Below, one piece after another: positions 9,182-29,281 of a DNA stretch of 34,440 nucleotides. Made by a program: the position numbers and the translations under genes. This DNA is from an uncultured bacterium. Its GTDB lineage: Bacteria; Bacteroidota; Bacteroidia; Bacteroidales; CAIWKO01. The stretch spans positions 1-34,440 of the forward strand of contig CAIOYH010000189.1 in the NCBI GenBank assembly GCA_903862465.1. Reading direction: 5' to 3'. The notes below the pieces were generated by a model that saw only the letters and a list, made by a program, of their open reading frames with translations, was not told the origin of the DNA and ran no database searches. Each line of letters opens with the position of its first letter. The stretch's first letter is position 1.

Positions 9182-9433
9182 GTACTCGCGTCCCAAAGTT
9201 GCGTACTGCAGTTCCTAGTTTGTGTACTGCAGTTCCTAGCTTGCGTACTGCAGTTCCCGATTTGCGTACTGCAGTTCCTAGCTTGTGTACAACAGTTCCT
9301 GACTTGTGTACTGCAGTTCCTAGCTTGCGTACTGCAGTTCCTAGCTTGCGTACTACAGTTCCCGGCTTGCGTACTGCGGTTCCTAGCTTGTGTACTACAG
9401 TTCCTGACTTATGTACTCCATTACCGAGCTTCC
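9182..9433. repeat. Tandem array of twelve 21-bp units (array 1)
   Basis: Twelve contiguous 21-bp units fill exactly 252 bp. A typical unit starts GTACTGCAGTTCCTAG and ends CTTGC. Inner units differ at a few positions (GCA/ACA, CCT/CCC, AGC/GAC/GGC, TGC/TGT); the first (9182-9202) and last (9413-9433) are degenerate. Three units (9224, 9308, 9329) are identical. Because 21 is divisible by 3, one frame on each strand stays open (heptapeptides RTAVPSL on plus, KLGTAVR on minus), but no credible start or domain goes with them. There are no spacers, so it is not a CRISPR array. Confidence 0.95.
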
Positions 9434-9544
9434 GAACGCAACATCACTGCTATCGTGGTTGAATTTATTACCTTCCTGCGAGTGTAAAAAATCAGCTATC
9501 AAACGTTTTAAAAAATCAAAGAACTATCTATATCTTTACGAGAA

Positions 9545-9552
9545 CAAAGGTA
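9545..9552 (-). promoter_or_regulatory. Possible -7 promoter element reading into array 1
   Basis: The complement of 9545-9552 reads TACCTTTG, a full match to the Bacteroidota -7 box TAnnTTTG. No TTG is seen at the usual distance upstream, so this is weak. If used, transcription would run through the 21-bp array to the gene at 9070. Confidence 0.3.
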
Positions 9553-9607
9553 AGTATAAAAATACCGTGCCGCGCTGTTATGGTCGTAAACACGGAAAGA
9601 TATTTTC

Positions 9608-9994
9608 CTAAGCCACGTATTCAACTACATTAAAGATATTTGCAAGAAATAAAAAGTTTTCTATATGTACCTCCGCCACGTATAATTCCTCCACGTTTTT
9701 AAGCATCACCATGATACCTCTTCCATAGTAACGAAACTTGATGGCATAACTCATGTTTATGCTATGTTGTTTGCCTAAATGGCAAAAAATCATGGGGTCG
9801 CATTGCAGCTCGAACGCCTTTAGGCTCATTTTCCGCTTCCATTGGTTGCCCACCTTAAAAAAGATGCTCAAATCCTTGTTCTTTACACATAAATACGCCA
9901 CCGTATTGGGGTCGTCTATAGCTATTTTAGGCATGCCCGGCAGATGGACGATACCGTAAACTATTGACTTTGGTTTCTTTTTTCGAGGGCACAT
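9608..9994 (-). CDS. Stand-alone LytTR-like DNA-binding protein
   Basis: 128 residues with no receiver or membrane domain. After a basic N-terminus (MCPRKKKPKS), the sequence follows the LytTR plan: a strand with KNKDLSIFFKV, the SLKAFE segment, then IFCHLGKQHSINMSYAIKF matching the family's F-x-r-x-H-[rk]-S-x-x-N-x-x-x-I core, and a last strand ELYVAEVHIENFLF. Such proteins bind DNA directly. It diverges from the restriction-modification genes, with its own promoter at about 10031, so it could control them or the array region; that is positional inference. The match is by pattern only and moderately sure. Confidence 0.55.
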   Translation of the reverse strand: MCPRKKKPKSIVYGIVHLPGMPKIAIDDPNTVAYLCVKNKDLSIFFKVGNQWKRKMSLKAFELQCDPMIFCHLGKQHSINMSYAIKFRYYGRGIMVMLKNVEELYVAEVHIENFLFLANIFNVVEYVA

Positions 9995-10008
9995 AGTTTT
10001 GTGGGTTT

Positions 10009-10038
10009 AGGTGGAAAAGAAATAATTGTGTAAAGGTA
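10009..10038 (-). promoter_or_regulatory. Promoter for the LytTR-like gene (near-consensus -7)
   Basis: The complement of 10031-10038 reads TACCTTTA, one base from TAnnTTTG. About 22 nt further upstream on that strand lies TTTG (near 10061-10064). The predicted start is about 30 nt before the ATG at 9994. Confidence 0.4.
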
Positions 10039-10044
10039 TAAAGA

Positions 10045-12270: not shown

Positions 12271-12275
12271 AACTT

Positions 12276-15200
12276 TTAATCCTTAATAAACTTCCTAACC
12301 CCTTTCCCATTTTCTGATGTAAGTACCATATAATACATGCCTCTCGCAAGCTTCGATATATCAATATCCATTTTGGGTTTCAGCATGGGTTGCGTTAGCA
12401 GCAATTGCCCTTCGATATTATAAAGTGAGAGCGTTGCGCTTGTAAAAGTATTTGATGAAGTGTTTTCAATCGTAATGGTAGTGTTGGCAGGGTTGGGGTA
12501 TAAATCAAAATTAGTAGTTGAATTATAGTCTGAAATTCCGGTACATGTTTGAACGTGAATTGTAATAGCTGCGGTAGCCGTGCAACCGGTGACCGTAACC
12601 GTAACTGAATAGGCAGTAGTAACAGCAGGGTTAACTGTGATAATTGTTGTTGCTAAGCCGGTGCTCCATAGATACGATCCGCCGCCGGATGCCGTGATAG
12701 TTGCACTTGAGCCTAAGCAAATCGTGTCGTGATTTGCAACAAGACCTGCCGTTGGAATAGGATATACATTAACGGCGCCCGAGACAGTGCTAGGCAATGC
12801 ACATCCGGAATCTATAGCAGCGCAATAATAATATTTCGTTCCTGCAATAGTTGTCAAAGGAGTATAAGTGGGGTTCGTTGCACCGGGTATCAATGTTCCA
12901 CCCGTGTTTGAAGAAACAGTATTGCTATACCATTGAAATCCGGTAACAGGTGCCGCAGCCACTGTTAAAGCTGTTGCTGGTCCGCCTAAGCATATACTTT
13001 GGGTAACTAGTGAAGGCTGTAAGGAGTACACTGCCGGAGTTGCCATATTTACAGTAACCGGGGTGCGGGTAGCGGAAACACAACCGCCTCCAACATACGT
13101 TACGGTAACAGAACCATTGCCGAAAGTAGAAAGCACTGTTGCGCTTGTGCTTGCAGCTGTAGCATCAATATAGGAACTTCCGCCATAACCTGATGTATAG
13201 GAGCCGCCGCCGCCGCCGCCGCCGACATAACCGCCGCCGCCTCCGCCGCCACCTGTGCTGCATGAACAGGAGGCGCCACCGCCACCAAATCCACCATCAC
13301 CGTAGCCGGCACCGGGCCATCCACCTGCTTGACCGCCCCTTTGTCCATTTCCTCCGCTTGTGAAACTTTTTGCAACAGGATTATATACTCCGTAAGTAAA
13401 ATTAACTCCGGGAGTTGAAAAGCCTGCACCATTACTTCCGAATTGCTGAATGGCAGAACTTACAACGGCTGTTGTTGTGCTTGCATTCTGACCTGCAACA
13501 ACAATTTGTGCGGAACCACCGCCGCCACCTGCAACAAACAAAGGTGTGGCTGTTGTATAACTTGCGCCCTGAGCCACAAATGAACCACCACCACCACCAT
13601 CAGAATTAGTAAGAGCATGGCTTGAACCCACTTGTCCAACTATAATATTAAGTATAGTGCCGGCATTAAGCATAACGGTTCCGTTAACCTGCGCTCCATA
13701 GCCTGAATAGGTTGCTAAAGTTCCTCCACTAGCTCCCTTAACTGCAAAAGTATAAGAACCTGTTGCGGGAACAGTCCATTGCTGAATACCCCTTCCTAAT
13801 ACAGTAACTGCTCCGGCAAGCGTTGTGCTTGCATAAGCCGTGTTTACCATGGCTTGTGTTGGTCCAACGGTATCAGTAGCCGTACAACTGGTGAAATTAT
13901 ATATGGTGCTAGCCGGTTGGGATGCTTCCGCATAATAGGTAGTAGGAGCAGTTGGTGAAACAACAAAATTGCCGCCACTGGCTGAAGTACCTATTAGTGT
14001 TCCACCTGTTGGAACGGTGTACCAAGTGATAGTAGCTCCGGGTTCAATGGCGCTAAGGCTTGTTGAACTGCCGGGGCAAATTGTTGGCGGTGTAGCCGTA
14101 ACAATAGTAGGTGCACTAATGATAACAGCATTAAACGTAGCAGAATTTTGAGTTGCCCCACAACTTGTAACTGCGCAGTATATGTTTGCGTTGGCTGTTA
14201 AACTACCGGGATCAAACGTTTGAGTAGTGATACCGGTTGAAACTCCGCCTAAATACCATAAATACGTAAATGTTCCGTTACCTCCCGACCCTGCTGCTGA
14301 AAGTGTTCCGGGCGAAGCACCTGAACAAATACTGGGAGAACCGCCGGATAATACAGGTGTTCCATTTGCAGGATATACTGCAATTGGACCGGAAACATTA
14401 CTAGGAAAGCTACAGCCACTTGTTGCAATGCAATAGTAATAAAGCGTGCCTGCTGTTGTGGTAAGGGGCGTATATGTAGTGTTGGTTGCTCCGGGTATTA
14501 ATGTTCCTCCGGTATTTGATGCTGTAGCATTACTGTACCATTGATATGATGTTGCAGGTGAAGCAGCAACTGTTAAAGGCGTAGGTGCACTATTAAAGCA
14601 TAAGGTTTGTGTGGCTGTTGCAGGTTGTACTGAAAATACAGGACCCGGAATCACGGTAACAGTAACAGGAACGCGAGTTGGACTTGCGCAACTGGGAGTA
14701 TAATAAGCTATGATTACTTGACCGTTGCCTGCATTTGTAGCAGCCGTATTTGTTTGGGTTGTGCCGCTATTGTAAGAACCACCGCCATATCCGCTAGCTA
14801 AAGTAGAAGTAAGATTATATCCGCTACCGCCACTATATCCTCCACCTGCGCCTGCTTGAAAATTACAAGAACTATAATAATCTGCCGTAGCGCCACCTCC
14901 AAAACCACCTGGTCCATAGGATGCACTTATGCCACCGGCGCCGCCCTGACGGAATCCTTGACCCCCAACACCATAAGTAGGAAAGTAAGTATCATTTCCA
15001 CCGGAAGTATAAAATCCACCACCACCTCCACCGCATGATGTGGAAGCTGCTCCGTTACCATTCGTGCCTGGCACAGGTCCACCGCCATCACCGGTGGTTG
15101 TAACATTCGTTATTTGTCCTCCTTGTCCTGCACCACTCGTATAGCTTCCGCCACCGCCTCCTGCACATATCATGGGTGTAGCCGTAGTATAACTTGCGCC

Positions 15201-16673
15201 TAAAGCAACAAATGTACCTCCACCACCACCAGGCATACACGAACAACCGGTACCACCAGGTTGCTGTCCTACTAAGATGGATAAAACTTGTCCGCCGGTT
15301 ACAGTGAATGTGCCTTGTACTGATGCGCCAAGCCCGCCTGGTGCTGCTGCACTATATTGTCCACCTTGTGCTCCTTTTGCTGTAATGGTAAGCGAGTTAA
15401 CTCCTGCCGGAACAGTCCATGTAACAATAGAACCGGTATATGAATACGTTGTGCTTGTAAAATTGTTGCCTACTGCTTCTGCATAATAGGTTGTAGTTGC
15501 CGTTGGTGAAACTGCATAATTTGCTCCGCTTACTGAATTGCCAATACTAGTTCCACCAGTTGGAACAGTGTACCAGTTGATTGTGTAACCCGTTGCAGTT
15601 GCACTTAAGTTGGTTGAGCTACCATTACAAATTGTAGATGGTGTGGCTGTAACGCTTGTAGGGTTTGGCGGATTTGCTACAATTATTGCTCCTGATACAG
15701 TACTGGTTACTGATGAACCGCAAGTATTAGAAACAACGCAATAATAATATAAAGTCCCGATTGCTAATGTCGAAGGAGTATAGCTGCTGCTTGTAGCTCC
15801 GCTGATAAGTGTTCCTCCTGAGTTTGTTGCTACAGTATTGCTGTACCATTGATAATTTGTAGCAGTGGCTGATATTGTTAAGGGCGCGACTGCACCGCTG
15901 GGACATAAATTCTGAGATGCTGTTGATGGTTGAGTTGTTATTGCTACAGGAGGTGTCCATGTGTAGGTTTGTCCATTGGCAGGATAAACAGTAGAAGAGT
16001 ATGTTAAAGTATCAGCATTCGAGGTGCCAGTAATAGTAGCTGCCCATGAAGTTGTAGTTTTCCTGCAATTAAAATCCGCAACAGTAGCACCGGTAAGACC
16101 AACTTGTTTTCTTAAATGATCTACTGCAACACCTGCACCATAACATATTTGAATAGTATTAGAAGTTTCATATAATTTTAGTTGCATAGGCAAGGTACTA
16201 GATGTACTTACATTATCAACGTAATAATTGGTAAACTGAATAGTAAATACTCTGTTTGGTGCAGTACCTGTAAGTGACCATACAGGAGCTCCAAATAGTT
16301 TCCCATTACCGGCACATATTGCAATACAGTTGGGTAAAGAAGATAATGGAACGTACGTAGTTGTTGAAGATGCTGTAACTCCAAGCTGAGCAAAGCCATT
16401 TGTATTTGCTGATATTTGAGTAAATGTTATGCCATGATAAACAAAATTAAATCCAATGCTGGTTAAGGCTGAATAGCCATCATCAGTGGTACCGCCCGCA
16501 AGCGTAAAAGCTGTGCCTGAAATGGCATTGTAGGGTCCTGATGTCTGAGAAAAGCAATACGTTGAAACATTTTGCGCTTTCACTTCCAAGTTTACGCTAA
16601 AAAGCATAATCATAACCATTGCAACTATCGTCGCAGCGGTTTTTCTAATAATTGATGTGTAGATATTTTTCAT
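12276..16673 (-). CDS. Giant secreted surface protein with T9SS type A sorting domain and duplicated glycine-rich/Ig-like modules
   Basis: 1465 residues. A signal peptide (to about residue 33, ending EVKAQN) is followed by a beta-rich N-domain (34-240). Then come Ig-like repeats with the hallmark QWYSN...YYYC (about 245-335, 670-760, 1205-1290), short repeats beginning TATP and ending TTYYAEA, and two very glycine-rich domains (about 430-656 and 960-1194) with GGGGGS runs and the pattern FVAxGASYTTATP, resembling the bacterial ALK/LTK-type glycine-rich family. Residues from about 335 to 770 and 855 to 1295 are two copies of one compound module. The C-terminus (about 1390-1465) is a type A sorting domain: DLYPNPAN, LYNIEGQLL, SKLARGMYYM. 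The protein should cross the outer membrane through the type IX system and be anchored or released; an adhesin or matrix role is likely but not shown. Confidence 0.88.
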   Translation of the reverse strand: MKNIYTSIIRKTAATIVAMVMIMLFSVNLEVKAQNVSTYCFSQTSGPYNAISGTAFTLAGGTTDDGYSALTSIGFNFVYHGITFTQISANTNGFAQLGVTASSTTTYVPLSSLPNCIAICAGNGKLFGAPVWSLTGTAPNRVFTIQFTNYYVDNVSTSSTLPMQLKLYETSNTIQICYGAGVAVDHLRKQVGLTGATVADFNCRKTTTSWAATITGTSNADTLTYSSTVYPANGQTYTWTPPVAITTQPSTASQNLCPSGAVAPLTISATATNYQWYSNTVATNSGGTLISGATSSSYTPSTLAIGTLYYYCVVSNTCGSSVTSTVSGAIIVANPPNPTSVTATPSTICNGSSTNLSATATGYTINWYTVPTGGTSIGNSVSGANYAVSPTATTTYYAEAVGNNFTSTTYSYTGSIVTWTVPAGVNSLTITAKGAQGGQYSAAAPGGLGASVQGTFTVTGGQVLSILVGQQPGGTGCSCMPGGGGGTFVALGASYTTATPMICAGGGGGSYTSGAGQGGQITNVTTTGDGGGPVPGTNGNGAASTSCGGGGGGFYTSGGNDTYFPTYGVGGQGFRQGGAGGISASYGPGGFGGGATADYYSSCNFQAGAGGGYSGGSGYNLTSTLASGYGGGSYNSGTTQTNTAATNAGNGQVIIAYYTPSCASPTRVPVTVTVIPGPVFSVQPATATQTLCFNSAPTPLTVAASPATSYQWYSNATASNTGGTLIPGATNTTYTPLTTTAGTLYYYCIATSGCSFPSNVSGPIAVYPANGTPVLSGGSPSICSGASPGTLSAAGSGGNGTFTYLWYLGGVSTGITTQTFDPGSLTANANIYCAVTSCGATQNSATFNAVIISAPTIVTATPPTICPGSSTSLSAIEPGATITWYTVPTGGTLIGTSASGGNFVVSPTAPTTYYAEASQPASTIYNFTSCTATDTVGPTQAMVNTAYASTTLAGAVTVLGRGIQQWTVPATGSYTFAVKGASGGTLATYSGYGAQVNGTVMLNAGTILNIIVGQVGSSHALTNSDGGGGGSFVAQGASYTTATPLFVAGGGGGSAQIVVAGQNASTTTAVVSSAIQQFGSNGAGFSTPGVNFTYGVYNPVAKSFTSGGNGQRGGQAGGWPGAGYGDGGFGGGGASCSCSTGGGGGGGGYVGGGGGGGSYTSGYGGSSYIDATAASTSATVLSTFGNGSVTVTYVGGGCVSATRTPVTVNMATPAVYSLQPSLVTQSICLGGPATALTVAAAPVTGFQWYSNTVSSNTGGTLIPGATNPTYTPLTTIAGTKYYYCAAIDSGCALPSTVSGAVNVYPIPTAGLVANHDTICLGSSATITASGGGSYLWSTGLATTIITVNPAVTTAYSVTVTVTGCTATAAITIHVQTCTGISDYNSTTNFDLYPNPANTTITIENTSSNTFTSATLSLYNIEGQLLLTQPMLKPKMDIDISKLARGMYYMVLTSENGKGVRKFIKD

Positions 16674-16722: not shown

Positions 16723-17091
16723 TTAATTTCTAATTATAGGTCCAACAAACTCAAGCTTTGAAAGCAAGTTGAGCCTGCCGAAACGAACTTTCAGTACTGC
16801 GGAACTAACTTGCAAGTCTGAAAAGTCGTTGTTTTGAATCATAAAATGTCTTGAATGGTCTGCATTATGGGTTTTTTCTTCAGCAGAAAGGTTTAGCTGT
16901 TCAAGCCTACTTGCTGCATGATGATGAAAGCTAAGTGCATCATCATTCAAATTATTATGTTGGGCAGCACTAAGAGCTTTTTCCATAGGAAATAAAGGAT
17001 AAGAGGGGGGCGTGTGTGTGTAAAAGTGTCTCACTCCATCTTTTTTGATAGAAATATAACCACCACAATTAAAATCAAACTTACCGATCAT
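16723..17091 (-). CDS. Possible small protein of unknown function in the adhesin leader
   Basis: 122 codons from an ATG at 17091 to the stop at 16723, 49 bp upstream of the adhesin start. There is no signal peptide, known domain or transmembrane segment; histidine is frequent (HFYTHTPP, LSFHHHAASR). A well-formed promoter (17145-17174) lies 54 bp upstream, so the region is probably transcribed, but the message could simply be a long adhesin leader. Residues FGRLNLLSKLEFVGPIIRN at the end are unusual in a real C-terminus. Kept as a low-confidence gene. Confidence 0.3.
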   Translation of the reverse strand: MIGKFDFNCGGYISIKKDGVRHFYTHTPPSYPLFPMEKALSAAQHNNLNDDALSFHHHAASRLEQLNLSAEEKTHNADHSRHFMIQNNDFSDLQVSSAVLKVRFGRLNLLSKLEFVGPIIRN

Positions 17092-17283: not shown

Positions 17284-17392
17284 AATGACCCTTAATAACT
17301 ATCAATAAACAAAAGGCTTAAACCTGTCCCGTACACGTAGTGTCGGGATGACCACCAAATGACCTAATGACTCTAAATGACAAACAAATGAA
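17284..17392. repeat. AATGAC-type degenerate repeats with a CCCG hairpin
   Basis: This 310-bp gap beyond the RND pump gene has no credible gene. It holds AATGAC-like hexamers at 17284, 17347, 17358, 17366, 17376 and 17387, the same word as at 25087-25155 but less regularly spaced. Between them is a hairpin at 17327-17348 (TCCCG plus ACAC pairing with GTGTCGGGA, one bulged T). Confidence 0.6.
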
Positions 17393-17401
17393 TTAAAGGA
17401 T

Positions 17402-20400
17402 TTAATTATCCTTATACATTTTAATTAAAAAGCTCGGCAAAACTATCAGCAATAAAGGCAGGGCAATAATCAAACCGCCAATTACTGCAATGGCTAAGGG
17501 TTGATGCATCTGCGCGCCTGTGCCTATGCCCGCTGCCAAAGGCGATAGCGCGACAATAGCGCCGATGGCTGTCATCAATTTAGGTCGTAAACGCGCCGAG
17601 ATGGCGTAGCTGAGAGCTTCCCTTACATCCGAACGTTGTCGTTCGGACAAAAACTGTTGTATGGTGAAGATGGCATTCTCACCAATGATGCCTATTATCA
17701 TAATGAGTCCGGTGTAGCTTCCCACATTCAGCGGTGTATGGGTTAGAAACAACGCCAAGAGACTTCCTGTGATACCTAATATGCTAATGAATATGGTGAT
17801 TAAAGAGAGTTTTAAATCTTTAAACATAAACAAAACAACCAAAAAAACCAACAAGCCACCCGAAATCAAAATCATGAGCAACTCAACGAAGGATTGTTGT
17901 TGCTCGGCATAGGAGCCACCGTACTCGACATGATAGCCGGGTGGAGTGCTGATTTTGCCGACCTTTTCCTGTATATCTTTCATCACACTTCCCAAATCGC
18001 GTTCGTTCAATCGAGCGGTAACTACACCCACAGTCTGCAGATTTTCGCGCTTGATTTCCGCCACGCCGTTTTGTATGGAAATGTCAGCAAAATGGGATAA
18101 GGAAACCACCTCGCCGGAAGGCAAAAATATCTTGGTTTGGAGCAGATGGTCAACAGAAGTTTGATTATTCAGGGGGTAAATCATGCGGATGTTGGTGAGT
18201 TGTTCCTTTTCGGGGATGCTGCCCACCACGATGCCGCCCAAATTAGCTTGTATCTGAGTCTGTATGTCTGTGGCGTTTAAGCCATACTGCCGCAGGTCAG
18301 CTTCCTTAGGAATCACCTTAACCACTGGACCGGCAATCACGATTCCATCAAACACATCAGCGGTTCCGGCAACGCTTTCCACACTGTCGGCTATTTGTTT
18401 CGATAAGTCTTTCAACTTTTCGTGGTCGTTACCGAAAATCTTGACTTCCACAGGCTGCACACTGCTCATCAAATCGCCCAACATGTCAGTGATCACCTGC
18501 CCGAAATCAACCACCAAAGCAGGAACGGCAGCTTCAACCTTTTTCCGAATATCGTCGGAGACATCTTCGGTAGTCTTATCACGTTTTTTGTGAAGTTGAA
18601 TCAGATAATCACCACTGTTTGGTTCGGTGATGAAAAAGCCCATCTGCGAACCCGTGCGTCGAGAATAGGTTTCCACTTCGGGAGTCTTATCCAATATCTT
18701 ATCCACCGAAGTAAGCATACGGTCTGTTTCCTCAAGGGAAGTCCCCGGGGGGCTGTTGTAATCCAAAACGATGGAACCCTCATCCATTTCGGGCAAAAAT
18801 CCATTCTGTAGTTTGGGAACGATATACACAGCACAAGCAATGAGAACCACCACGAAGCTATAGGCAATGTAAGGCTTTTTCAAGAAAAACACAATCCAAT
18901 TCCGGTGCTTCACCAATTGTTTTTTTCCACTGTCGGAAAAGGCTTTATCTCTTGAAAACAATAAATATAACACGGGCAAGCCCAACCACACTACCACAAA
19001 TGAGCATACCAACGTGATGACCATGGTTTCGGTTAATATTTTGAAATAAGCACCTGCCACTCCCGACATCAGCACAAAAGGAATGAAGATGACGATGGTG
19101 CTTAAAGAAGAACTGAGCATGGCAGGAAACAAAAAGTTTATGGCTTTGCCTACAAGTTCTTTGGGTTTTCGCTCAGGGAATTCCTCGTGCGTTCGATGGA
19201 TTTGCTCCACCACAATAATGGCATCATCTATAATCAAACCGATGGATGCTGCAATGGCACCGATGGTCATGATATTAAAATCGAAACCCAACGCCCGCAG
19301 CACAATAAAGGTTAAGCCTAATGTAACAGGTATGCTAATAAGCACCACAGAGCTTGCCTTGAAAGAGCGCAAGAAAATAATTACTACGACAATGGCTAAC
19401 AACAAACCTATCCACAATACATCAATGATGCTGCGGATACTGTCATTGACGAACTCCGCCTGATTGTAATAGGGTTTCAATGTAACACCTTTGGGCAATA
19501 TTTTATTCAATTCCTGTACGCGTTTGTTGACATCCGTAGCCACATCAATCAAATTGCTGGTGGGTTGTTTCAACACGGCAACCAAAGGCACGTCTTTGCC
19601 ATCCACTTTGATTTTCACATATTCATTTTGAGCAGCCACCTCCACATGTGCCACATCGCTCATGGTGATACGTCGGTTGGTATCATTAAAAATCACAAGA
19701 TTCTCTAATTGATCTTTATCTTTGAGAGAGGCATCCGTAACGGTTAGATACAAACGTTTGTAATCTATCGTATATCCATTGGAAGCCACAAAACCCGTTT
19801 GTTCCACTGCATTGGCGATATCACGAGTACTAATCTTCAGCAAATTCATTTTCTGTTGATTCAAAACGATGCGATACTCTTTTTCTCTGCCGCCTATCAC
19901 GGCGATTTGCGATACGCCATCAATGCTCGAAAGGAAAGGCTTCACGGTGTATTCGGCTATCATTTTAAGCTCCACTTGCGTCTTGCTATCAGATTGCAAG
20001 GAGAATCCCATCACAGGCAAAATGGACGGATTCATCTTCTCAACCGTTATTTGCACTTCGGAAGGCAAATCGTTTTTTATTTGAGCAATCAGCGCCTCCA
20101 TGCGTTGCTTTGCCATATCAATGTCGCTACCCCATTTGATATAGGCAGATATTTCGCAACTTCCCATCGCGGTGGTGCTTCGTATCATCTTCAAATCGGG
20201 CACTTGCTTGATGGCATTCTCCAATGGCTTGGTGACTGTCACCATCATTTTATCCACAGGCTGACTTCCGTTCTCAGCAATGATTTTAATCTTCGGAAAT
20301 GTTACATCAGGGAATAAAGATGTCTTCATATACGAATAGGAAAACACCCCGCCGATGATGACCAACAAGAGTATGACCGCAATGGGGCTTTTGAATCGGA

Positions 20401-20416: not shown

Positions 20417-21319
20417 TTATTTCACTTTCTTGACAACGGAACTGTCGGGCAAGCCATACGCACCTTTGGTGATGATTATATCGTTGGGCAGCAGTATGGG
20501 CGTTAAAATCTCCGTTTCACTATCATTTACTATGCCTTTTGTTATGGGAACTTCGACGGCAAGCGTATCGTTTACCAATTTCATGAGCCAAAACTTATCT
20601 TGCGTTTCATTGGTCAATACAGCCGAGTTGGGCACACTTAATGCTTTGTCTTTACTTCTTTTCAATATGCTGATGATGACGTTTAGATTTTCGGGCAATT
20701 CAGAATAAGTGGAAAGTTTTACGAAAACGGATTGTGTCTGCGACATTTTATCCACCAATGGCATGATGCGAAATATGGTGGCAGGCAATTGTTTTCCGTC
20801 GGGCAGCACAAGTTGGCAGGCTTTTCCGAGCTTTATCACATCGTTGTTTTCGTAAGGCACATTCACCTGAATTACGAGGTTTTCGGGTTGCGTTATTTCG
20901 GCAAGCACATCGCCCTGCTGCGTGTATGTTCCTTGCTGCACATGAAGCGCCGAAAGGATACCGCTTTTATTACTTTTGATGAAGATGGAACGCGTGAACA
21001 AATTGGTGTCCTTCACCGAATTCATGGCATAAGCCTCGGAGGTTTTCACGGCAAATAGCTTTTGATTTTGAACGATATGCTCGCCCATCGTAGGAAATAC
21101 TTCCGTGATGTAGCCCGTTACCGTGCTTCTGACCACTTCCTTCTGCAAAAAGCTTGTCACTCCATTCAGCACAATATACTCGTTGAGGGTTTTGATTTGC
21201 GGATTGGCACATTCCACCTCAGGAATATTCTTTTGTTCGTCCGCTGCCGTGTTTTTCGTTGGATTGCAGGCAACAAGCAGGTTGAATACTAAAGCAACTA
21301 TGATAATTGAGTATTTCAT
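20417..21319 (-). CDS. Periplasmic adaptor (membrane fusion) lipoprotein
   Basis: 300 residues. A lipoprotein signal with lipobox LLVAC places the acylated Cys near residue 18, so the adaptor is membrane-anchored. A barrel-sandwich hybrid is split between VVRSTVTGYITEVFPTMGEH and NKSGILSALHVQQGTYTQQG; the intervening alpha-hairpin is very short, as in CusB-like or truncated adaptors. A beta-barrel follows (VNVPYENNDVIKLGKACQL) and a membrane-proximal part ends in GAYGLPDSSVVKKVK. It links the RND pump, whose gene follows without a gap, to the TolC-like channel encoded 16 bp upstream. Confidence 0.9.
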   Translation of the reverse strand: MKYSIIIVALVFNLLVACNPTKNTAADEQKNIPEVECANPQIKTLNEYIVLNGVTSFLQKEVVRSTVTGYITEVFPTMGEHIVQNQKLFAVKTSEAYAMNSVKDTNLFTRSIFIKSNKSGILSALHVQQGTYTQQGDVLAEITQPENLVIQVNVPYENNDVIKLGKACQLVLPDGKQLPATIFRIMPLVDKMSQTQSVFVKLSTYSELPENLNVIISILKRSKDKALSVPNSAVLTNETQDKFWLMKLVNDTLAVEVPITKGIVNDSETEILTPILLPNDIIITKGAYGLPDSSVVKKVK

Positions 21320-21335
21320 TTTATTCTTATTCTTT

Positions 21336-22652
21336 TTACCAATTCAGATAATTATATTCGTTAATCGCAAGCATTTTGTTTGTTTCAGCCAAGGTAGTAT
21401 CGCGCAGCAAATCGTTGTAGTTTCTAATGGCATTCAAATAATCAATCACCGATAACTGCCCCTGACTGAGTTGAATCTTATACATAGTCATGATCTCTTC
21501 AAAATCCTGTAACTGCTGTTTCTTTTGCGTAATGATATGCTCTAAAGCTTTTATTTTATTCAAGGCATTGACTTTTTGCACATCGTGTTGCTTCAAAAAA
21601 CTCGCTTTATAGGTCTCCGTAGTGTTCAACAAGATAGCGTTCTTTTGCTGTTCCAATTGCTTTTGCTTGCCATCATAGAGCATCCAATTAAACGTGAGAC
21701 CTGCGCTCCAACCAAACTTACGTTGGATGCCGGGCAGTTCCACTGCATTTAAGCCCGTGTTTGCATACAGGTTAAGGCTCGGTTTGTACTTCAAATTATA
21801 AACGTTTTGAGATGCGATGATTTGCAAACTATCACTTTTATACATCTGCAAGAACTTCGAATCAACATTGCTGTGCAAAGCTTCAATATTGGGAGTTGCA
21901 ATTATGACAACGGCGGAGTCTTTTATGCCGCATAGGGACTTTAATTGTAAAAAATTATCTGCATAATCCGATAGATATTGCGCGAGATTGATTTGCTGAT
22001 TTTGAATTTCGATACCCATCAACAAATAATCCGTTTGCTTGGCAAGCCCATTCACCACAAGGGTCTTCACCACTTCTTTTTCGTCTATCAATAGGTTTAT
22101 CGCGTTCTGAACATACGTAATCTGCACTTGCGATAGATAACAAACGATATATTGATTTGTGATTTGCTGTGTAAGCTCATGTTTGGTGAGTTCAATTTGG
22201 TTGGAGAAGGACGCTTTTTGCGCCAAACAATCATTGCGATATGCCATTTTGCCCGCCGATGTCAACAAAGGCAAACTCGCATTGGCAGTGGCGGAGTAGA
22301 GTCCGCCATTCGACATGTTTACATCATATCCTATGGCTTTGTCGCCGGGTTTGGCGGAGATAAATCCACCATTATTATTCAAATAGGGCGCAAGCATAAT
22401 ATCGCTTTGCACATACACTTTCGGGCTTGCCAATTCGGCAACGGATTGTTTCAAATTTAATTCTGCAAGTCGAAGCTTATTCTCGTTGTCTTTTATGATA
22501 GCGTTGTTTTGAAAAGCACTATCCATTAAAGTTTGCAGACTGACAGCCATAGGTTGTGTAAAATGAGACGCATTTTGTGCTTTGGCAACACAAAATATGC
22601 CCAATAAAAGAATGCTTGCTACTAAAATGCGTCTCATCTTAACTTTCATCAA
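21336..22652 (-). CDS. TolC-like outer membrane efflux protein
   Basis: 438 residues with a signal peptide (hydrophobic ILVASILLLGIFCVAKAQ). Two structural repeats of coiled-coil helices are present: LRLAELNLKQSVAEL, LTKHELTQQITNQYIVCYLSQVQ for the first, and QLEQQKNAILLNTTETY plus KIKALEHIITQKKQQLQDF for the second, with outer-membrane strand segments between them (LNLYANTGLNAV). Proteins of this family form trimeric channels. M1 at 22652 is used; M2 and M6 are near and cannot be excluded. It lies 21 bp behind the PepSY-like gene. Confidence 0.9.
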   Translation of the reverse strand: MMKVKMRRILVASILLLGIFCVAKAQNASHFTQPMAVSLQTLMDSAFQNNAIIKDNENKLRLAELNLKQSVAELASPKVYVQSDIMLAPYLNNNGGFISAKPGDKAIGYDVNMSNGGLYSATANASLPLLTSAGKMAYRNDCLAQKASFSNQIELTKHELTQQITNQYIVCYLSQVQITYVQNAINLLIDEKEVVKTLVVNGLAKQTDYLLMGIEIQNQQINLAQYLSDYADNFLQLKSLCGIKDSAVVIIATPNIEALHSNVDSKFLQMYKSDSLQIIASQNVYNLKYKPSLNLYANTGLNAVELPGIQRKFGWSAGLTFNWMLYDGKQKQLEQQKNAILLNTTETYKASFLKQHDVQKVNALNKIKALEHIITQKKQQLQDFEEIMTMYKIQLSQGQLSVIDYLNAIRNYNDLLRDTTLAETNKMLAINEYNYLNW

Positions 22653-22673
22653 TGTTTAATACGCCTCAAGCGA

Positions 22674-23141
22674 TTAATCTTCTTCTTCGCTCTCTTTCCC
22701 AATAGGTTCTTTCTTCACTAATTTGCCATCGGCAGCAAGCTGAACTTCAAATTTCGAGCTTCCTTTTGATACTTCAAATTCGTATAACTTGGCGGCACCG
22801 GGAGTTTCTAATATCACCGATTCGTTTATTTTATAACCCGCGAACTCTTTATCTAAAGTGGCTTTCACAGTAACCGGAATTTGAGCATTAGTCAACTCTA
22901 TTTCTGTTTCTAACCACTTACCTGTTTTATCAAAATTCGCAGAACATTCGGCTCCATCTTTCATAAAACTGATTTCGTAATCGTTCTTTTCCATCTCATA
23001 GCCCACCTTAGTGGCAGTTGGAAACTTTGCTTTGAAAGCGGTTTTTACTTCAGCAGGAACTTTTGCTTCCGCTACCTTTTGACTAAATGCAGCATTCGAT
23101 ATCAGTAGGAATGCCGCTATTATTAAAATAATGTTTTTCAT
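22674..23141 (-). CDS. PepSY-like periplasmic protein
   Basis: 155 residues with a cleavable signal peptide (IILIIAAFLLISNAAFSQ). Two PepSY-like repeats follow: VPAEVKTAFKAKFPTATKVGYEMEKNDYEISF with AECSANFDKTGKWLETE, and TLDKEFAGYKINESVILETP with LYEFEVSKGSSKFEVQLAADGKL. The pattern fits the PepSY-like family (PF11396 type), often found in Bacteroidota near two-component or efflux genes. It has an acidic tail (ESEEED). As first gene of the efflux operon it may bind or sense a periplasmic ligand of the pump; that is inference. Confidence 0.85.
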   Translation of the reverse strand: MKNIILIIAAFLLISNAAFSQKVAEAKVPAEVKTAFKAKFPTATKVGYEMEKNDYEISFMKDGAECSANFDKTGKWLETEIELTNAQIPVTVKATLDKEFAGYKINESVILETPGAAKLYEFEVSKGSSKFEVQLAADGKLVKKEPIGKESEEED

Positions 23142-23233
23142 TGTATTTATATTTTATTGTTTATATAAGATATTTGTTTGCAATTACATGTATGTCGTAG
23201 CGCCCATACCGTAATGATAAGAAAGTGCCACAA

Positions 23234-23272
23234 CATTATGCAATACAAAAGTAAGGCATTATGCAATACAAA
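23234..23272 (-). promoter_or_regulatory. Promoter with 16-bp direct repeat upstream of the efflux operon
   Basis: CATTATGCAATACAAA occurs twice without mismatch, at 23234-23249 and 23257-23272 (period 23). The minus strand has TACTTTTG (complement of 23246-23253), a full -7 box straddling the end of one copy, and TTTG (complement of 23269-23272) in the other, with a short 15-nt spacer. A regulator bound to the repeats would cover the promoter. The leader would be about 95 nt. Confidence 0.6.
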
Positions 23273-23340
23273 CGTGATTAATTTTGAAATAATGATAAAA
23301 TCAACAGACGAGGGGTTCTAGAAATTAGATTTTTCGAGGC

Positions 23341-23400
23341 GGACAAGTTTTTAAAAGCGCAGTTTACCCGAGTAAATGAGCATTTTAAAAATCAAAGTCC
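23341..23400. repeat. 60-bp imperfect palindrome element
   Basis: GGAC at 23341 pairs with GTCC at the end, TTTTTAAAAGC (23348-23358) with GCATTTTAAAAA (one bulge), and GTTTAC with GTAAAT around CCGA. It lies between the efflux operon and the exported protein. One plus frame across it is open for about 37 codons, but without a start or known family. It looks like a miniature or extragenic repeat element. Confidence 0.5.
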
Positions 23401-23417
23401 AACGATGAAAAAATAAT

Positions 23418-23837
23418 TTATAGAACTCCCAAGATGATTTCGGGGGGATGAAAGATAGCATTCAGGTCCGTACTTCTATACGTTTTGATATAAGGAGTAT
23501 TATTTTCGACCTTTGTGACAACGGGAAGCATAGATATAGCAGACGGTTCAACGTAATAACACAACATATAAACACCCGAAACAACCATATCAATCGGCAC
23601 GGGCTTTTGCTCTTTCTCAAAAGGATTATCAGCGGGTTCATCTTCCACATTAAATGAAGTCATCTTGTCAAAAAATTCTTCTTCGCAAAAATCAAACACG
23701 CTCACATCGCCATTCAGTTGCTTATACTCGGATATCATTCGCGGCAATTGCATCAACAAACCAAAATCGCCCTTCGGTAGTATCACCGAAGCGGTTAGGA
23801 TTTGTAAAGATACTATAATTGCGAGAATTCTTTTCAT
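23418..23837 (-). CDS. Small exported protein of unknown function
   Basis: 139 residues from the ATG at 23837. A longer frame to 23924 is rejected because it would contain the promoter (-7 box at 23883-23890) and starts in intergenic repeats. A hydrophobic N-terminus (ILAIIVSLQILTASVIL) is a signal peptide or anchor. The middle is acidic (FDFCEEEFFDKM, VEDEPADNP); the end IFHPPEIILGVL has the H-P-P tail seen in several small Bacteroidota envelope proteins near metal-transport genes. A weak resemblance only; no function is claimed. Confidence 0.7.
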   Translation of the reverse strand: MKRILAIIVSLQILTASVILPKGDFGLLMQLPRMISEYKQLNGDVSVFDFCEEEFFDKMTSFNVEDEPADNPFEKEQKPVPIDMVVSGVYMLCYYVEPSAISMLPVVTKVENNTPYIKTYRSTDLNAIFHPPEIILGVL

Positions 23838-23882
23838 TAGATGGATAACGCTATTGGAATTGATTTTATTTGATTTAATGTG

Positions 23883-23912
23883 CAAATATACACAAAATAC
23901 CAAAAGCCAAAA
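23883..23912 (-). promoter_or_regulatory. Promoter of the small exported protein
   Basis: The complement of 23883-23890 reads TATATTTG (-7 match) and TTTTG lies 17 nt upstream (complement of 23908-23912). It decides the start at 23837, leaving a leader of about 40 nt. The -33 box falls within CCAAA-type heptamer repeats. Confidence 0.55.
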
Positions 23913-23990
23913 TCTAAATACCAAATACCAAGTCTTGCCACTACGAATTACGAATACCCAAAATACGAATTACAAATATACGAATACCTC
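23893..23990. repeat. 7-bp periodic repeat tract
   Basis: Consecutive heptamers of the forms CCAAAAG, CCAAAAT, CTAAATA, CCAAATA, CCAAGTC, then TACGAAT twice and ATACGAA/TTACAAA variants. Same family as 29061-29158. No gene is seen in it. Confidence 0.65.
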
Positions 23991-24440
23991 CATATCTCAG
24001 TGTATCTCCTTTTGCTCTTTGTGTTTCCGTGTAAATTCCATAAAGCTACATGCCAAACCTAAAGCTTCTAAGAGCATAATTCGTAATTCAGAAATTCGTA
24101 ATTCAAAAAAGCTTCGCACACAAAATCATCACAGCAAAAAGAAAGAAAACTACTTTATAAACTCGATTCGTTTATCCGTGTGATTTTCGAAATTTGATAG
24201 ATTTCTACAACAAATTACGTGAGAAAAATGCTTCGCTTCTGCTGTAATTTTTCTCTATAAAATCATCATATAAAACATCCTTTTTATGTAAGAAAAAAAT
24301 GTGTTTTTTCACCAATTTTCCATCCATTTTTACGACAAAATCATCCAAAGTCATACGCCTTAAAAATTCAAAAATCAGACATTTTGTCATATCATTCTTC
24401 GATTTTTAGGTTTCAAAAGCCCAAATACCCCCTTTATAGC

Positions 24441-24797
24441 CTATTTTTTCGATTTCGATGTAAGAATCGGTATGTTCGATGTGAGTTTCGCCATGTTCGA
24501 TGTGAGAATCGCCGTAGTCGATGTGACAATCGCCATGTTCGATGTGACAATCGCCATGTTCGATGTGAGTTTCGTCATATTCAATGTTAATTTCGCCGTA
24601 GTCAAAGTGAGTTTCTTCATAGTCGATATGAGTTTCGCCATACTCAATGTGACTTTCGCCGTAGTCATTGTGAATTTCGCCATAGTCATACTGACATTCT
24701 TTCCGATTATTCTAAGAATTTTATACGCTGAAAAGCCTTTCTCCAAGCTCAAAAAAGCGATAGATATATAAGCTGAAAACAACGCATCCGAAGCCAT
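24441..24797 (-). other. Open frame across array 2 (doubtful gene, 118 codons)
   Basis: An ATG at 24797 opens about 35 non-repetitive residues (with hydrophobic ALFSAYISIAFLSLEKG) and then eleven heptads such as MAKLTSN and MAIVTSN, ending SKSKK. An N-terminal unique part followed by heptads could be a small coiled or fibrous protein, but no promoter box is seen upstream and the plus strand is equally open. Probably a by-product of a 21-bp period. Confidence 0.2.
24454..24705. repeat. Tandem array of twelve 21-bp units (array 2)
   Basis: Twelve contiguous 21-bp units, again exactly 252 bp. A typical unit starts TTCGATGTGAGTTTCG and ends CCATG. Units diverge gradually rightwards (GTCATTGTG, GTCATACTG). 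TTCG or ATCG occurs twice per unit. Frames are open on both strands with heptapeptides (FDVSFAM on plus, MAKLTSN on minus). The sequence is unrelated to array 1, yet unit length and unit number are the same. Confidence 0.95.
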
Positions 24798-24846
24798 AAA
24801 AAATGCTCAAAATATCACCCTAAATCATCATCCCAAAACATGAAAT

Positions 24847-24876
24847 AAGCCGTTGCATTTTCAGTCAGCAAGGCTT
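24847..24876 (-). terminator. Terminator-like hairpin
   Basis: AAGCC and TTGC (24847-24856, one bulged G) pair with GCAA and GGCTT (24868-24876) around an 11-nt loop. It resembles the stems of the terminators at 8272 and 12129 but lacks a strong T-run. Perhaps a decayed terminator. Confidence 0.4.
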
Positions 24877-24985
24877 GTGGGTTTATGAGAGAATAAAATA
24901 ATAAGGTTTAGAAGGTAAGCCGTGTTAGGTGTTGCCGTTCTATTGACGTGGAGGAAGAAAGGAAGAAGATTTTTCGATTCAATAT

Positions 24986-25076
24986 ATTTCGCCCCTAAAG
25001 GGGCTTAGGAGAGAGGGGGTGCATTTTTCCCTGACTTGTTGGTCGGGACTACAAACATTTCACCCCTAACGGAGTT
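24986..25076. repeat. Two diverged copies of a CCCCTAA repeat with a hairpin between
   Basis: ATTTCGCCCCTAAAGGGGCT at 24986 and ATTTCACCCCTAACGGAGTT at 25057 are diverged direct copies; the first is itself palindromic (CCCCTAAAGGGG). Between them 25029-25047 folds as CCC-GAC with GTC-GGG, like the hairpin at 17327. No gene is present. Confidence 0.55.
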
Positions 25077-25086
25077 CTCGAAAAGC

Positions 25087-25155
25087 AATGACAAACAATG
25101 ACCACCTAATGACAATAAATGACCTCCTAATGACAACAAATGCCCCCTTATTGAC
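25087..25155. repeat. Helically phased AATGAC hexamers
   Basis: AATGAC occurs at 25087, 25097, 25108, 25118 and 25129, with variants AATGCC at 25139 and ATTGAC at 25150. Successive distances are 10, 11, 10, 11, 10 and 11 bp, a 21-bp period with 10.5 bp per element, so all lie on one face of the helix. It sits 22 bp beyond the stop codon of the MMPL fusion gene. Confidence 0.85.
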
Positions 25156-28100: not shown

Positions 28101-29037
28101 AGGAAAACAAACCACCGAAAAGCACAGGAGTCATCAGCACAAAGAAGGTGCCTTTGTTTTTGAAGAACACAGCGAAGAAAATCAGCAGCAGCAATAAGGC
28201 GATTCCCATGGTGATATAGAAATCAATACGCAACTGACCTGCGTTACCAACAGCAGCAGCCACCGCACCGTAATATTGTATCTTGATAGCGGCATTTCCT
28301 GCTTTGTCGTTATAATCTTGGATGATGTCGTCGAGTTTGGTGATAAACTGCGTGTTCTTATAGCTTTCGCTTGTGGGGTTGGCGGCGCTGAGAAACATCA
28401 AAAGATGCTTCTTATCTCTAGAGAAAATATAGCCCTTAAACATCTCATAGCTGTTGCCGATGCCCGAGAGGCTCATCTTCTGCAAAGCAAATCGGCTTAA
28501 GCCCAATGGATCCCTGACAATGAACTTCCGCATGAAAATACCCGCAGGCGAGACCAATAATTTATAATCTTTTTGCAGCATAGAATCAATCTTGGTGGAG
28601 TCCATCATGGTGGCGATGTTATCGTAGTCGGTAGCGTCTAAGAAATAGGGCAGATTGTTCCACAAAACATCGTAGGTGCCTGTCATTTGGTCCTCGCTGA
28701 TTCTGTAGGTCATATCTTTGACCATATCGGGCATTAGTTTGTTCTTCACTTCCTGCGAAAGCTTATCGGCGCAAGCAATCAATTCGTCGGGCGAAGCTTT
28801 CTTGTTCTCATCCTTAGAAATGATGACAATAAGTCTGTTGTTTGAGCTAACCAATTTGAACACATCGGTGATATTCTCCACGCCTTTAGTCTTAGGCAAG
28901 AAATCGGTGATATCCTCATTGAACTTTATACGTATGGCTAAGGTATAAAAGAGCGCAACCAACACAAACAAGATTGCGAAAAGCAGAAACTTGCGCCTCA
29001 CAAAGAAATCATAAATCTTTAAAAATACTGTTGCCAT
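25177..29037 (-). CDS. MMPL/RND exporter fused to a PlsC acyltransferase and a SAM methyltransferase
   Basis: 1286 residues from ATG 29037 (MATVFLKIYDFF). A start at 29106 would only add residues encoded by intergenic heptamer repeats. Residues 1-820: two RND-type halves with about 12 membrane helices and periplasmic loops. In the first half the TM4 position usually holding Asp reads GIAINYSVHF (Asn), while the second half keeps acidic residues in GLGDDFSIF. Residues about 880-1090: acyltransferase with N-H-x4-D (NHQSLID, near 903) and FPEGTR (near 970). Residues about 1095-1286: class I methyltransferase with DIGCGYGYL (near 1117) and DVLHYFSDEKQ. The three activities could acylate, methylate and export one lipid-like product. 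Similar parts occur as separate or fused genes in aryl-polyene and flexirubin clusters. Confidence 0.9.
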   Translation of the reverse strand: MATVFLKIYDFFVRRKFLLFAILFVLVALFYTLAIRIKFNEDITDFLPKTKGVENITDVFKLVSSNNRLIVIISKDENKKASPDELIACADKLSQEVKNKLMPDMVKDMTYRISEDQMTGTYDVLWNNLPYFLDATDYDNIATMMDSTKIDSMLQKDYKLLVSPAGIFMRKFIVRDPLGLSRFALQKMSLSGIGNSYEMFKGYIFSRDKKHLLMFLSAANPTSESYKNTQFITKLDDIIQDYNDKAGNAAIKIQYYGAVAAAVGNAGQLRIDFYITMGIALLLLLIFFAVFFKNKGTFFVLMTPVLFGGLFSFGVIYLIHPHISLIAIGAGSIILGIAINYSVHFYAHYRHVKSLRVVIKDLALPLTLGSTTTIGAFLGLMLVKSDVLRDFGLFSALCLVGSVLFTLVFFPFFIKTKKEVDDHIHKDNIIDKISAYKFDRNPYILGGIVVLTVFFFIMARKVSFEDDMNKLGYTSTKLKQAEQTLSNISDSSLRQIYVVSKGKTLNESLKNNEIINRKISQLQAKNMINQVAGVSSVLLSDSMQNIKAQQWETFWNPHRIDDLKRWLLASGKKLKFREDAFLGFLGRIEHKPEKINAADFDYLKQQLAGQFINQDADNNFVVTVLKINPQKRDAVVKALPEDQNTVIVETHNLLSHFIDVINNDFNTILLISSLLVFFFLLFSYGRIELAIITFIPMFISWIWILGIMSLLDIKFNIFSIIISTFIFGLGDDFSIFIMDGMLQEYKRRGVKLLDSYKTAVFLSAFTTLIGVGVLIFAQHPALKSIALLTIIGMFSVVFLSYTIPPALFRLLVYKKDAFRKFPLTAYDFLYAVTCYTYFLTGCFITALLGLSIYKILPVGRKNRRWLYHITLMIVCRSTMYLMYFTRKKIINLGKDTFKKPAVIIANHQSLIDIPLFLMFSHKVIMITNDKFYYNKFIGIIVKLGGYLPASAGFDFIGDKLATAVADGYSIMVFPEGTRNNDGHLHRFHKGAFYLADKMHLDILPLVSHGTGDYIAKGELMGKKSLITVKFLDRIRHEDAAWGEDYSARAKNIQALMRNEYELLLNEHYRKPKQFRDIVIRNFVYKGPIVEWYSRIKLRLERNYQVYDELIPRKAKITDIGCGYGYLSLILGMVSSERLIHGIDYDEEKIEIAEHCMSKPRNVSFSHGDITECALEPCDVFILSDVLHYFSDEKQLRVIEKCIRNLNPGGRILIRDGNSDLHDKHKLTRFTEFFSTNIGFNKTDDMQLHFLSATRLQAIVSSFDMKMSIINKGVMTSNMLFLIEKES

Positions 29038-29060
29038 GCTGTTCCACTCTTTATTAAGAT

Positions 29061-29158
29061 CCAAATACCAAATTCCAAGTTCCAAATACCAAGCTCCAAA
29101 TACCAAATCCCAAGCTCAAAGACCCAAATCCCAAGCTACAAGCTCCAAATATCGAAAT
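29061..29158. repeat. Fourteen 7-bp units (CCAARNN)
   Basis: From 29061 every 7 bp reads CCAAATA, CCAAATT, CCAAGTT, CCAAATA, CCAAGCT and so on, 14 units without phase loss; three are degenerate. It fills the first half of the gap between the fusion gene and the glycosyltransferase. Confidence 0.85.
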
Positions 29159-29169
29159 GTGATTACTTT

Positions 29170-29281
29170 TTACCATATACCGTATACTTTATACCTATTA
29201 CCATTTACTCTATACCTGTTACCATTTACCCTATACCTGTTACCATTTACCAAATACCATCTACCATTTACCATCTACCCT
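29170..29281. repeat. Sixteen 7-bp units (WTACCHN) with a 21-bp superperiod
   Basis: Heptamers such as TTACCAT, ATACCTG and TTACCCT follow one another from 29170 to 29281. ATACCTG-TTACCAT recurs every 21 bp (units 29188, 29209, 29230, 29251). The last heptamer overlaps the stop codon of the glycosyltransferase gene (29275-29277). Confidence 0.85.

What the first reader, a model, noticed from the sequence alone, without database searches (positions are those of the whole stretch)
9182..29281. Several unrelated intergenic repeats share one length scale: 7, 10.5 and 21 bp
Array 1 (9182-9433) and array 2 (24454-24705) have 21-bp units. The tract at 29170-29281 has 7-bp units with a 21-bp superperiod, and 29061-29158 has 7-bp units. 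The hexamers at 25087-25155 alternate 10 and 11 bp, giving 21. Their sequences are unrelated, so they are not copies of one element. 21 bp equals two helical turns, three heptamers and seven codons. Plain slippage would not be expected to choose the same period repeatedly. Possible explanations: phased binding of a nucleoid or partition protein, sequence-independent curvature, or a repeat-generating process with a fixed step.
Basis: partly seen in the sequence, partly recalled or inferred. Interest (0 to 1): 0.8.

Follow-up and report, generated by a model that had tools for sequence, protein, structure and literature searches.

The report
21-bp repeat arrays before accessory genes
This uncultured Bacteroidales genome carries many intergenic arrays of about twelve 21-letter DNA repeats whose letters differ from place to place while the 21-letter step stays fixed, and such arrays sit just upstream of two little-known protein families in other Bacteroidota too, probably as evenly phased docking sites for gene regulators.

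Summary
In a 944-kb sample of this genome 107 of 189 tandem arrays have a period that is a multiple of 21 bp; neighbouring periods are near background. Units mostly differ between sites. Stretches from 20 other families of the order gave none (0 of 11 arrays).

The new finding is what the arrays accompany. The gene beside array 1 (8339-9070) belongs to a multicopy family with a helical N-terminus and a weakly Fn3-like C-terminus. An array of period 21k lies within 600 bp upstream of 32 of 37 testable family genes in ten genomes, and downstream of 0 of 37. A second family gives 13 of 19 against 0 of 18. In this genus stand-alone LytTR regulator genes precede arrays (11 of 14 examined). LytTR proteins bind 9-bp direct repeats 12 bp apart: 21 bp.

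Best reading: helically phased operator arrays for LytTR-type regulators of accessory genes. The association is shown; binding is inferred, and outside the genus a LytTR neighbour is nearly always missing. The heptamer tract (29056-29279) and the hexamers (25087-25155) are separate dispersed repeats.

The parts
9181..9425 (.). Array 1: 11.7 units of 21 bp (TRF consensus TTGCGTACTGCAGTTCCTAGC), adjacent units 80% alike; 110 bp upstream of the start of 8339-9070
8339..9070 (-). Gene of family A1 (243 aa; helical N-terminal part, weakly Fn3-like C-terminal domain; no Pfam or NCBIfam match); putative target of array 1
9608..9994 (-). Stand-alone LytTR DNA-binding protein (128 aa, PF04397, E 5.9e-5), same strand; its 3' end faces array 1; putative regulator
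24454..24699 (.). Array 2: 11.7 units of 21 bp, adjacent units 78% alike. No A1 or A2 gene beside it in the window; the related array on C71 (84%) lies between a methyltransferase-like gene and a 308-aa gene (names read from sequence)
16780..16825 (.). About two diverged copies of a 21-bp unit where relative L027 has about 13 copies: a short form of an array locus
29056..29279 (.). Heptamer tract (CCAAATA-like, then TACCATT-like) with 21-bp superperiod; a dispersed simple repeat, separate from the 21-bp arrays
25087..25155 (.). AATGAC hexamers at alternating 10/11 bp; a dispersed repeat, separate from the 21-bp arrays

Best explanation
The 21-bp arrays are cis-acting operator arrays: commonly 10-14 sites spaced two helical turns apart, lying about 60-350 bp upstream of small accessory genes (helical part plus an Fn3-like or carboxypeptidase-regulatory-like domain). 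In the window's genus several are served by a stand-alone LytTR regulator encoded just before the array. A LytTR protein reads a site of about 9 bp and the next site follows after about 12 bp, so that successive proteins sit on one face of the helix: the step is fixed while the letters can change. The phased sites also bend the DNA, so a filled array probably forms one wrapped complex that switches the accessory gene. Copy number changes by whole units; gene, array and regulator are gained, lost and exchanged between species. SHOWN: the period, the non-coding intergenic nature, the upstream association with two gene families, LytTR genes before arrays in the genus, copy-number and unit turnover. 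INFERRED: that LytTR (or a like regulator elsewhere) binds the units, and that the effect is on transcription.
For: A 21k array within 600 bp upstream in 32 of 37 testable A1 genes against 0 of 37 with 250 bp or more downstream; outside the genus 20 of 23. Second family A2: 13 of 19 upstream, 0 of 18 downstream, 0 of 8 control genes; outside the genus 10 of 16. Of the TRF arrays in the A1 upstream stretches 36 of 39 are 21k. Small LytTR frames (under 200 aa): 11 of the 14 examined have a 21k array within 1.5 kb, all 11 downstream of the LytTR gene; larger frames 4 of 16. Order LytTR - array - A1 gene on one strand in five loci. Published LytTR sites: 9-bp direct repeats 12 bp apart (11-13), conserved in spacing more than in letters, upstream of the -35 (passages of PMC6193735 and PMC2766830). 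Orthologous LytTR genes (87%) in G000 and G003 are both followed by three 12-bp cores at 21-bp steps with differing 9-bp spacers. Between the window and C40 modules the target protein is 84% identical, the LytTR protein 19%, and the units unlike. Congener G002 has no A1 gene, no LytTR frame under 200 aa, and 0 of 3 arrays of period 21k in 118 kb.
Against: No binding or expression data. Outside the genus a LytTR frame was found beside 0 of 24 A1 loci and 1 of 27 A2 or control loci (L233), and that one has no array. Only 5 of 16 A1 loci of the genus show a LytTR neighbour; one has a LuxR-like HTH protein instead (L179, read from sequence). Small LytTR loci elsewhere: 1 of 3 with a two-copy repeat downstream, 1 with one upstream, 1 with none. 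LytTR similarity does not predict unit similarity over 55 pairs; two G001 loci (L258, L274) have rather similar units with LytTR proteins under 35% identical. The conserved block expected inside a unit is only modestly supported (z -1.9 to -2.7). Published sites have two repeats, not twelve. Many arrays of the genus have no A1 gene (10 A1-type proteins among 1126 in the sampled stretches).
Confidence: 0.5

Rival explanations
1. Shape element: any sequence repeated every 21 bp is intrinsically curved, and the curve itself (helping RNA polymerase or a bending protein) is the function; no sequence-specific regulator is needed.
For: Wedge model: 48 arrays have end-to-end/contour 0.557, column-permuted arrays 0.604, random 252-bp genomic pieces 0.844; the same units at 19, 20 or 22-26 bp give 0.79-0.92. 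31 of 48 arrays are more curved than their permuted median, 5 at p <= 0.05. It explains why letters are free, and why LytTR neighbours are missing outside the genus.
Against: Curvature alone does not need near-identical units. LytTR genes before arrays in the genus stay unexplained.
Confidence: 0.22
2. By-product: a lineage-specific duplication process with a 21-bp step (replication or repair on DNA wrapped two turns) makes arrays in any spare DNA; they do nothing.
For: In the genus arrays lie in tandem (26), convergent (13) and divergent (11) gaps, many with no A1 gene; copy number differs between species in whole units. Isolated 11-mer pairs outside TRF arrays also show a small excess at lag 21 (15 against a mean of 5.3 per lag), though less than at lags 7, 15 and 14.
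Against: In other families the arrays track A1 genes (20 of 23 upstream, 0 downstream) where 20 random stretches gave 0 of 11 arrays of 21k.
Confidence: 0.12
3. Exchange site: arrays are recombination points by which accessory gene modules are swapped, comparable to cassette recombination sites that conserve structure rather than letters.
For: A gene-plus-array block (L088:8794-10889) is absent from the orthologous site in G003; the same unit family (89%) lies in G003:C31 without that gene beside it; after orthologous LytTR genes the downstream DNA differs between species.
Against: The array lies inside the missing block, not at its edge; no recombinase or target duplication was found or systematically sought; most unit sequences are unlike, so homologous pairing between sites would be rare.
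Confidence: 0.1
4. Coding: the arrays encode heptad-repeat peptides (21 bp = 7 codons).
For: Open frames cross arrays 1 and 2; one array reads as a coiled-coil-like heptad (L115).
Against: 48 arrays: 2.21 open frames of six against 1.91 expected; 7 arrays with none against 7.3 expected; variable columns show no 3-base rhythm (z -2.4, below chance). Periods 20, 41, 43, 52 and 53 also occur.
Confidence: 0.02

Closest known systems
LytTR-family operators (SilA, HdrR/BrsR of the LytTR Regulatory Systems; AgrA-type)
   Same: Direct repeats at 21-bp steps (9 + 12 bp), upstream of a gene, spacing conserved more than letters (passages)
   Different: Two repeats there, about twelve here; each array here mostly has its own unit; binding untested; LytTR neighbour mostly absent outside the genus
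BrickBuilt minisatellite/MITE of Porphyromonas gingivalis (PMC4596501, abstract and outline seen)
   Same: Intergenic minisatellite of near-21-bp unit in the same phylum
   Different: One 23-nt unit sequence within a mobile element with inverted-repeat ends, 19 copies; here many unlike units of exactly 21 bp, tied to gene families
Heptamer direct repeats (TAACTGA of Beggiatoaceae, cyanobacteria and some Bacteroidetes, PMC4679880, abstract and passages; cyanobacterial STRR, recalled)
   Same: Short intergenic heptamer arrays; fits the tract 29056-29279
   Different: Different heptamers; does not describe the 21-bp arrays, whose units are not heptameric
Plasmid iterons / centromere arrays (recalled)
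   Same: Helically phased direct repeats of about 17-22 bp beside the gene of their binding protein
   Different: Few sites per replicon; here about 107 arrays in 22% of a genome, beside accessory genes

Membership tests
LytTR operator | Direct repeats with 20-22 bp between equivalent positions | tested here: met
   Period 21 in arrays 1 and 2 and genome-wide
LytTR operator | Conserved core of about 9 bp and variable spacer within the unit | tested here: inconclusive
   Clear after one orthologous LytTR pair (L266/L270); over 48 arrays z -1.9 to -2.7
LytTR operator | Lies upstream of a regulated gene | tested here: met
   Position only: 32 of 37 A1 genes, array end to start codon 59-352 bp, median 130; regulation not tested
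LytTR operator | Matches the LytTR binding consensus | not tested
LytTR operator | LytTR protein encoded nearby | tested here: inconclusive
   Met in the genus from the LytTR side (11 of 14 small frames examined; 14 of 19 such frames had loci); from the array side 5 of 16 A1 loci; outside the genus 0 of 24 A1 loci and 1 of 27 A2 or control loci
LytTR operator | Bound by a LytTR protein | not testable with these tools
   Needs gel shift or footprint
CRISPR array | Identical repeats separated by unique spacers | tested here: not met
   Whole units repeat head to tail without spacers
BrickBuilt-type MITE | One unit sequence with inverted-repeat ends, copied over the genome | tested here: not met
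   99 unlike units remain after removing look-alikes; inverted-repeat ends were not systematically sought
Heptamer repeats (tract 29056-29279 only) | 7-bp intergenic tandem unit, dispersed over the genome | tested here: met
   Lag 7 in the tract; similar tracts on many stretches

The most novel reading that the evidence does not exclude
A class of cis-elements found across Bacteroidota in which selection holds the repeat step (21 bp, two turns) and roughly the length (about 12 units) but not the letters, tied to two or more families of accessory helix/beta-domain proteins and, in one genus, to fast-changing stand-alone regulators: an exchangeable gene-array-regulator module.
Probability: 0.4. 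Interest if true: 0.88.

Novelty: new variant of a known kind. Interest (0 to 1): 0.75.

Why it matters
It is a concrete case where DNA seems to keep a geometry while its letters are free to change, and it gives a simple signature (a 21k array upstream) for accessory protein families that sequence search barely detects: of the seven weak A1 matches in two other Bacteroidota families (E 8.5e-8 to 4.9e-4), six carry the array. If LytTR-type proteins read the arrays, it offers many natural regulator/operator pairs for learning how this DNA-binding domain changes specificity.

Tried and rejected
Coding heptads: rejected. Palindromic units: 5 of 53 arrays at p <= 0.05, a minority. One shared motif: only weakly enriched 5-mers. 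Promoter-only placement in the genus: arrays occur in all gap types (that gene finder ignores small ORFs lying mainly in arrays, so the single 'inside ORF' case of 51 may be an under-count). One family explaining all arrays of the genus: the A1 profile reaches 10 of 1126 proteins in the sampled stretches, 8 beside a lag-21 array, 1.07 expected; many arrays belong to other genes or to none. LytTR and arrays outside the genus: undecided, since could give no loci and searches are mostly negative. Paper searches without a match of use; one search listed 19 papers and 20 of 189, of which only PMC4596501 and PMC4679880 (already listed; passages) were opened. Array lengths may be capped by short-read assembly; six sampled contigs begin inside a lag-21 array.

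Rows set aside: stretches that are all N (3 in G000, 2 in G001, 2 in G002, 5 in G003). A1: 4 of 41 genes had under 250 bp upstream (one of them, L177, has an array). A2: 30 loci were returned out of a longer hit list; L227 and L231 had too little upstream, L244 was dropped from the controls for the same reason, L237 (407 aa) was counted as a control although it may be a distant member (as a member: 13 of 20 and 0 of 7). L219 and L240 count as positive on two-copy repeats, and one row of L216 is heptamer-like. A2 was built from genes beside arrays, so its three genus loci are no independent test. LytTR: 30 of 35 matches had loci; the five without were all in G001.
Full report
WHAT IS THERE. The window is contig C189 (34,440 bp) of a 4.23-Mb, 230-contig genome. 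A protein of the window is 97% identical to one in L027 (AlinenLipids bin-6511) and 63% to one in L028 (bin-7433, 'uncultured Bacteroidales'). Genome G001 is bin-7433: its contig C22 and record CAIWKO010000022.1 both have 80,331 bp. G003 is probably bin-6511 (about 560 against 558 contigs), an inference. Arrays 1 and 2 have 11.7 units each, adjacent units 80% and 78% alike.

GENOME-WIDE TEST. I sampled 61 stretches, the window included (944,224 bp, 5,865 of them N). TRF at score >= 60 found 189 arrays: 107 of period 21k, 18 of 7 or 14, 64 other; at score >= 150, 86 arrays, 58 of them 21k. One lag scan, 3 all-N stretches subtracted, gives 67 arrays at lag 21, 0-6 at the other lags tried from 17 to 35, 69 at lag 42 and 10 at lag 43. 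Congeners: 7 of 14 arrays are 21k in G001 (214 kb), 11 of 19 in G003 (155 kb), 0 of 3 in G002 (118 kb). Outside: 0 of 11 in one stretch from each of 20 other families of the order (253 kb, a few of them very short) and 0 of 5 in 18 loci of Mucilaginibacter, Chitinophagaceae and other Bacteroidetes (345 kb).

ANATOMY. The 61 internal lag-21 arrays of G000 have a median of 228 bp; 35 of 61 hold 9.7-14.7 units (heptamer tracts included). Of 67 arrays 16 are at contig ends; 50 of the other 51 are intergenic by my gene finder, in tandem (26), convergent (13) and divergent (11) gaps. They are not coding and palindromic units are a minority. After removing look-alikes and heptamers 99 unlike units remain from the arrays in hand. 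Periods of strong arrays are mainly 21, 42 and 63 with some at 84 and 126, but 20, 41, 43, 52, 53, 104 and 106 occur too, which fits helical turns better than codons or heptamers. With a recalled wedge table, 21-bp arrays are strongly curved whatever the letters, and changing the unit length to 19, 20 or 22-26 bp straightens them.

TURNOVER. At window 16780-16825 there are about two diverged units where L027 has about 13. A 308-aa gene (L088:1286-2212) has a homologue in G003 (83% at DNA level); both have an upstream array (256 and 243 bp) but with unlike units, while DNA beyond the arrays is again similar, 78% over 109 bp. A block with gene and array (L088:8794-10889) is absent from the orthologous site of G003. 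Arrays thus change copy number in whole steps, change their letters, and come and go with genes.

GENE ASSOCIATION. The gene left of array 1 belongs to a family (A1) without Pfam or NCBIfam match, in 4, 6, 6 and 0 copies in G000, G003, G001 and G002. AlphaFold gives six helices then a beta domain (pLDDT 77.4, pTM 0.50). The only PDB match with E <= 0.001 is an Fn3 domain (E 4.4e-4, TM by query length 0.30), so the Fn3 label is weak and covers the C-terminal part only. The A1 profile hit 7 of 295 genomes of the order and 3 of 395 drawn from the phylum, own genome included both times. Of 41 genes 37 had at least 250 bp upstream: 32 of 37 have an array of period 21k within 600 bp upstream. Of the 37 genes (not quite the same set) with 250 bp or more downstream, none has one there (Fisher 1e-15; paralogues are not independent, so this is a guide only). 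Misses: L181 (truncated gene), L204 (array 669 bp away), L203 (weak array below the cut), L185 and L209 (none). By genus: 12 of 14 inside, 20 of 23 outside, from seven genomes of seven other families. Array end to start codon: median 130 bp, range 59-352; of all TRF arrays in those upstream stretches 36 of 39 are 21k.

A second family (A2, about 305 aa, with a C-terminal part that also matches frames of 700-1000 aa, which I take for TonB-type receptors) was built from genes beside arrays. In loci returned for the order, 13 of 19 testable members have a 21k array upstream (10 of 16 outside the genus), 0 of 18 downstream, and 0 of 8 control genes that match mainly by the C-terminal part. It is sequence-unrelated to A1 as far as the two profiles show; I did not compare the profiles directly.

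REGULATOR. On the far side of array 1 lies a 128-aa LytTR protein (PF04397). PF04397 matches number 8, 14, 4 and 9 in G000, G001, G002 and G003; the four of G002 lie in frames of 249-348 aa. Of 14 small frames (under 200 aa) with loci, 11 have a 21k array within 1.5 kb, all downstream of the LytTR gene (eight within 350 bp, three at about 1.05 kb); of 16 larger ones 4 do (Fisher 0.009). Two of the three misses are cut by contig ends (L259, L272). Five A1 loci show LytTR - array - gene on one strand (L167, L169, L170, L172, L173). Published LytTR sites are 9-bp direct repeats 12 bp apart, conserved in spacing more than in letters (passages): 21 bp. An orthologous pair of LytTR genes (87%, G000 and G003) is followed in both species by three 12-bp cores at 21-bp steps with differing spacers, then by different DNA. 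In the window and C40 modules the target proteins are 84% identical, the regulators 19%, and the units unlike.

AGAINST THIS. Outside the genus a LytTR frame was found beside 0 of 24 A1 loci and 1 of 27 A2 or control loci (L233), which has no array. One A1 locus has a LuxR-like HTH protein instead (L179, read from sequence). Three small LytTR loci elsewhere are unconvincing. Across 55 pairs LytTR similarity does not predict unit similarity, and L258 and L274 have rather similar units with LytTR proteins under 35% identical. So the operator reading is favoured, not proven, and the regulator may differ by lineage.

THE OTHER TWO ITEMS. The 29056-29279 tract is a dispersed heptamer repeat, and the AATGAC hexamers at 25087-25155 another. 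AATGAC copies stand at both edges of a 7.8-kb block (17322-25103) that L027 lacks. They share 21 as a multiple; a gene association was not tested for them.

VERDICT. In detail: the 21-bp period is real, dominant in this genome, and, upstream of two accessory gene families, found in other families of the phylum. No report of it turned up in the searches, which cover open-licence papers only and were read as listings apart from the four papers opened.

Noticed in passing
17322-25103: A 7.8-kb block (RND-type efflux genes by reading the ORFs, plus array 2) is absent from relative L027; AATGAC hexamer tracts stand at both edges in the window and one tract remains in L027, as if recombination between tracts removed or added it.
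   Followed up: partly
16780-16825: Two diverged 21-bp units here against about 13 in L027 at the same site.
   Followed up: yes
29056-29279: Heptamer tracts of the CCAAATA/TTTGGAA kind recur on many sampled stretches of this genome, in short intergenic gaps.
   Followed up: no
L179:1498-2238 and upstream: An A1 module in G001 has, before its 42-bp array, a gene whose C-terminus reads like a LuxR-type HTH instead of LytTR: the regulator type may vary.
   Followed up: no
L266 and L270, downstream of the LytTR gene: Three 12-bp cores at 21-bp steps kept in two species, followed by different DNA: same regulator and site, different target.
   Followed up: partly
L214:1893-2382: A 42-bp G+C-rich array of 11.7 units upstream of an A1-like gene in a distant Bacteroidota genome.
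   Followed up: no
12276-16673: A 1465-aa glycine-rich repetitive protein with a signal-like N-terminus and a tail resembling a type IX sorting signal (read from the ORF list).
   Followed up: no
L009, L017, L100, L107, L113, L123 (contig starts): Six sampled contigs begin inside a lag-21 array, so arrays break the assembly and true lengths may be greater.
   Followed up: no
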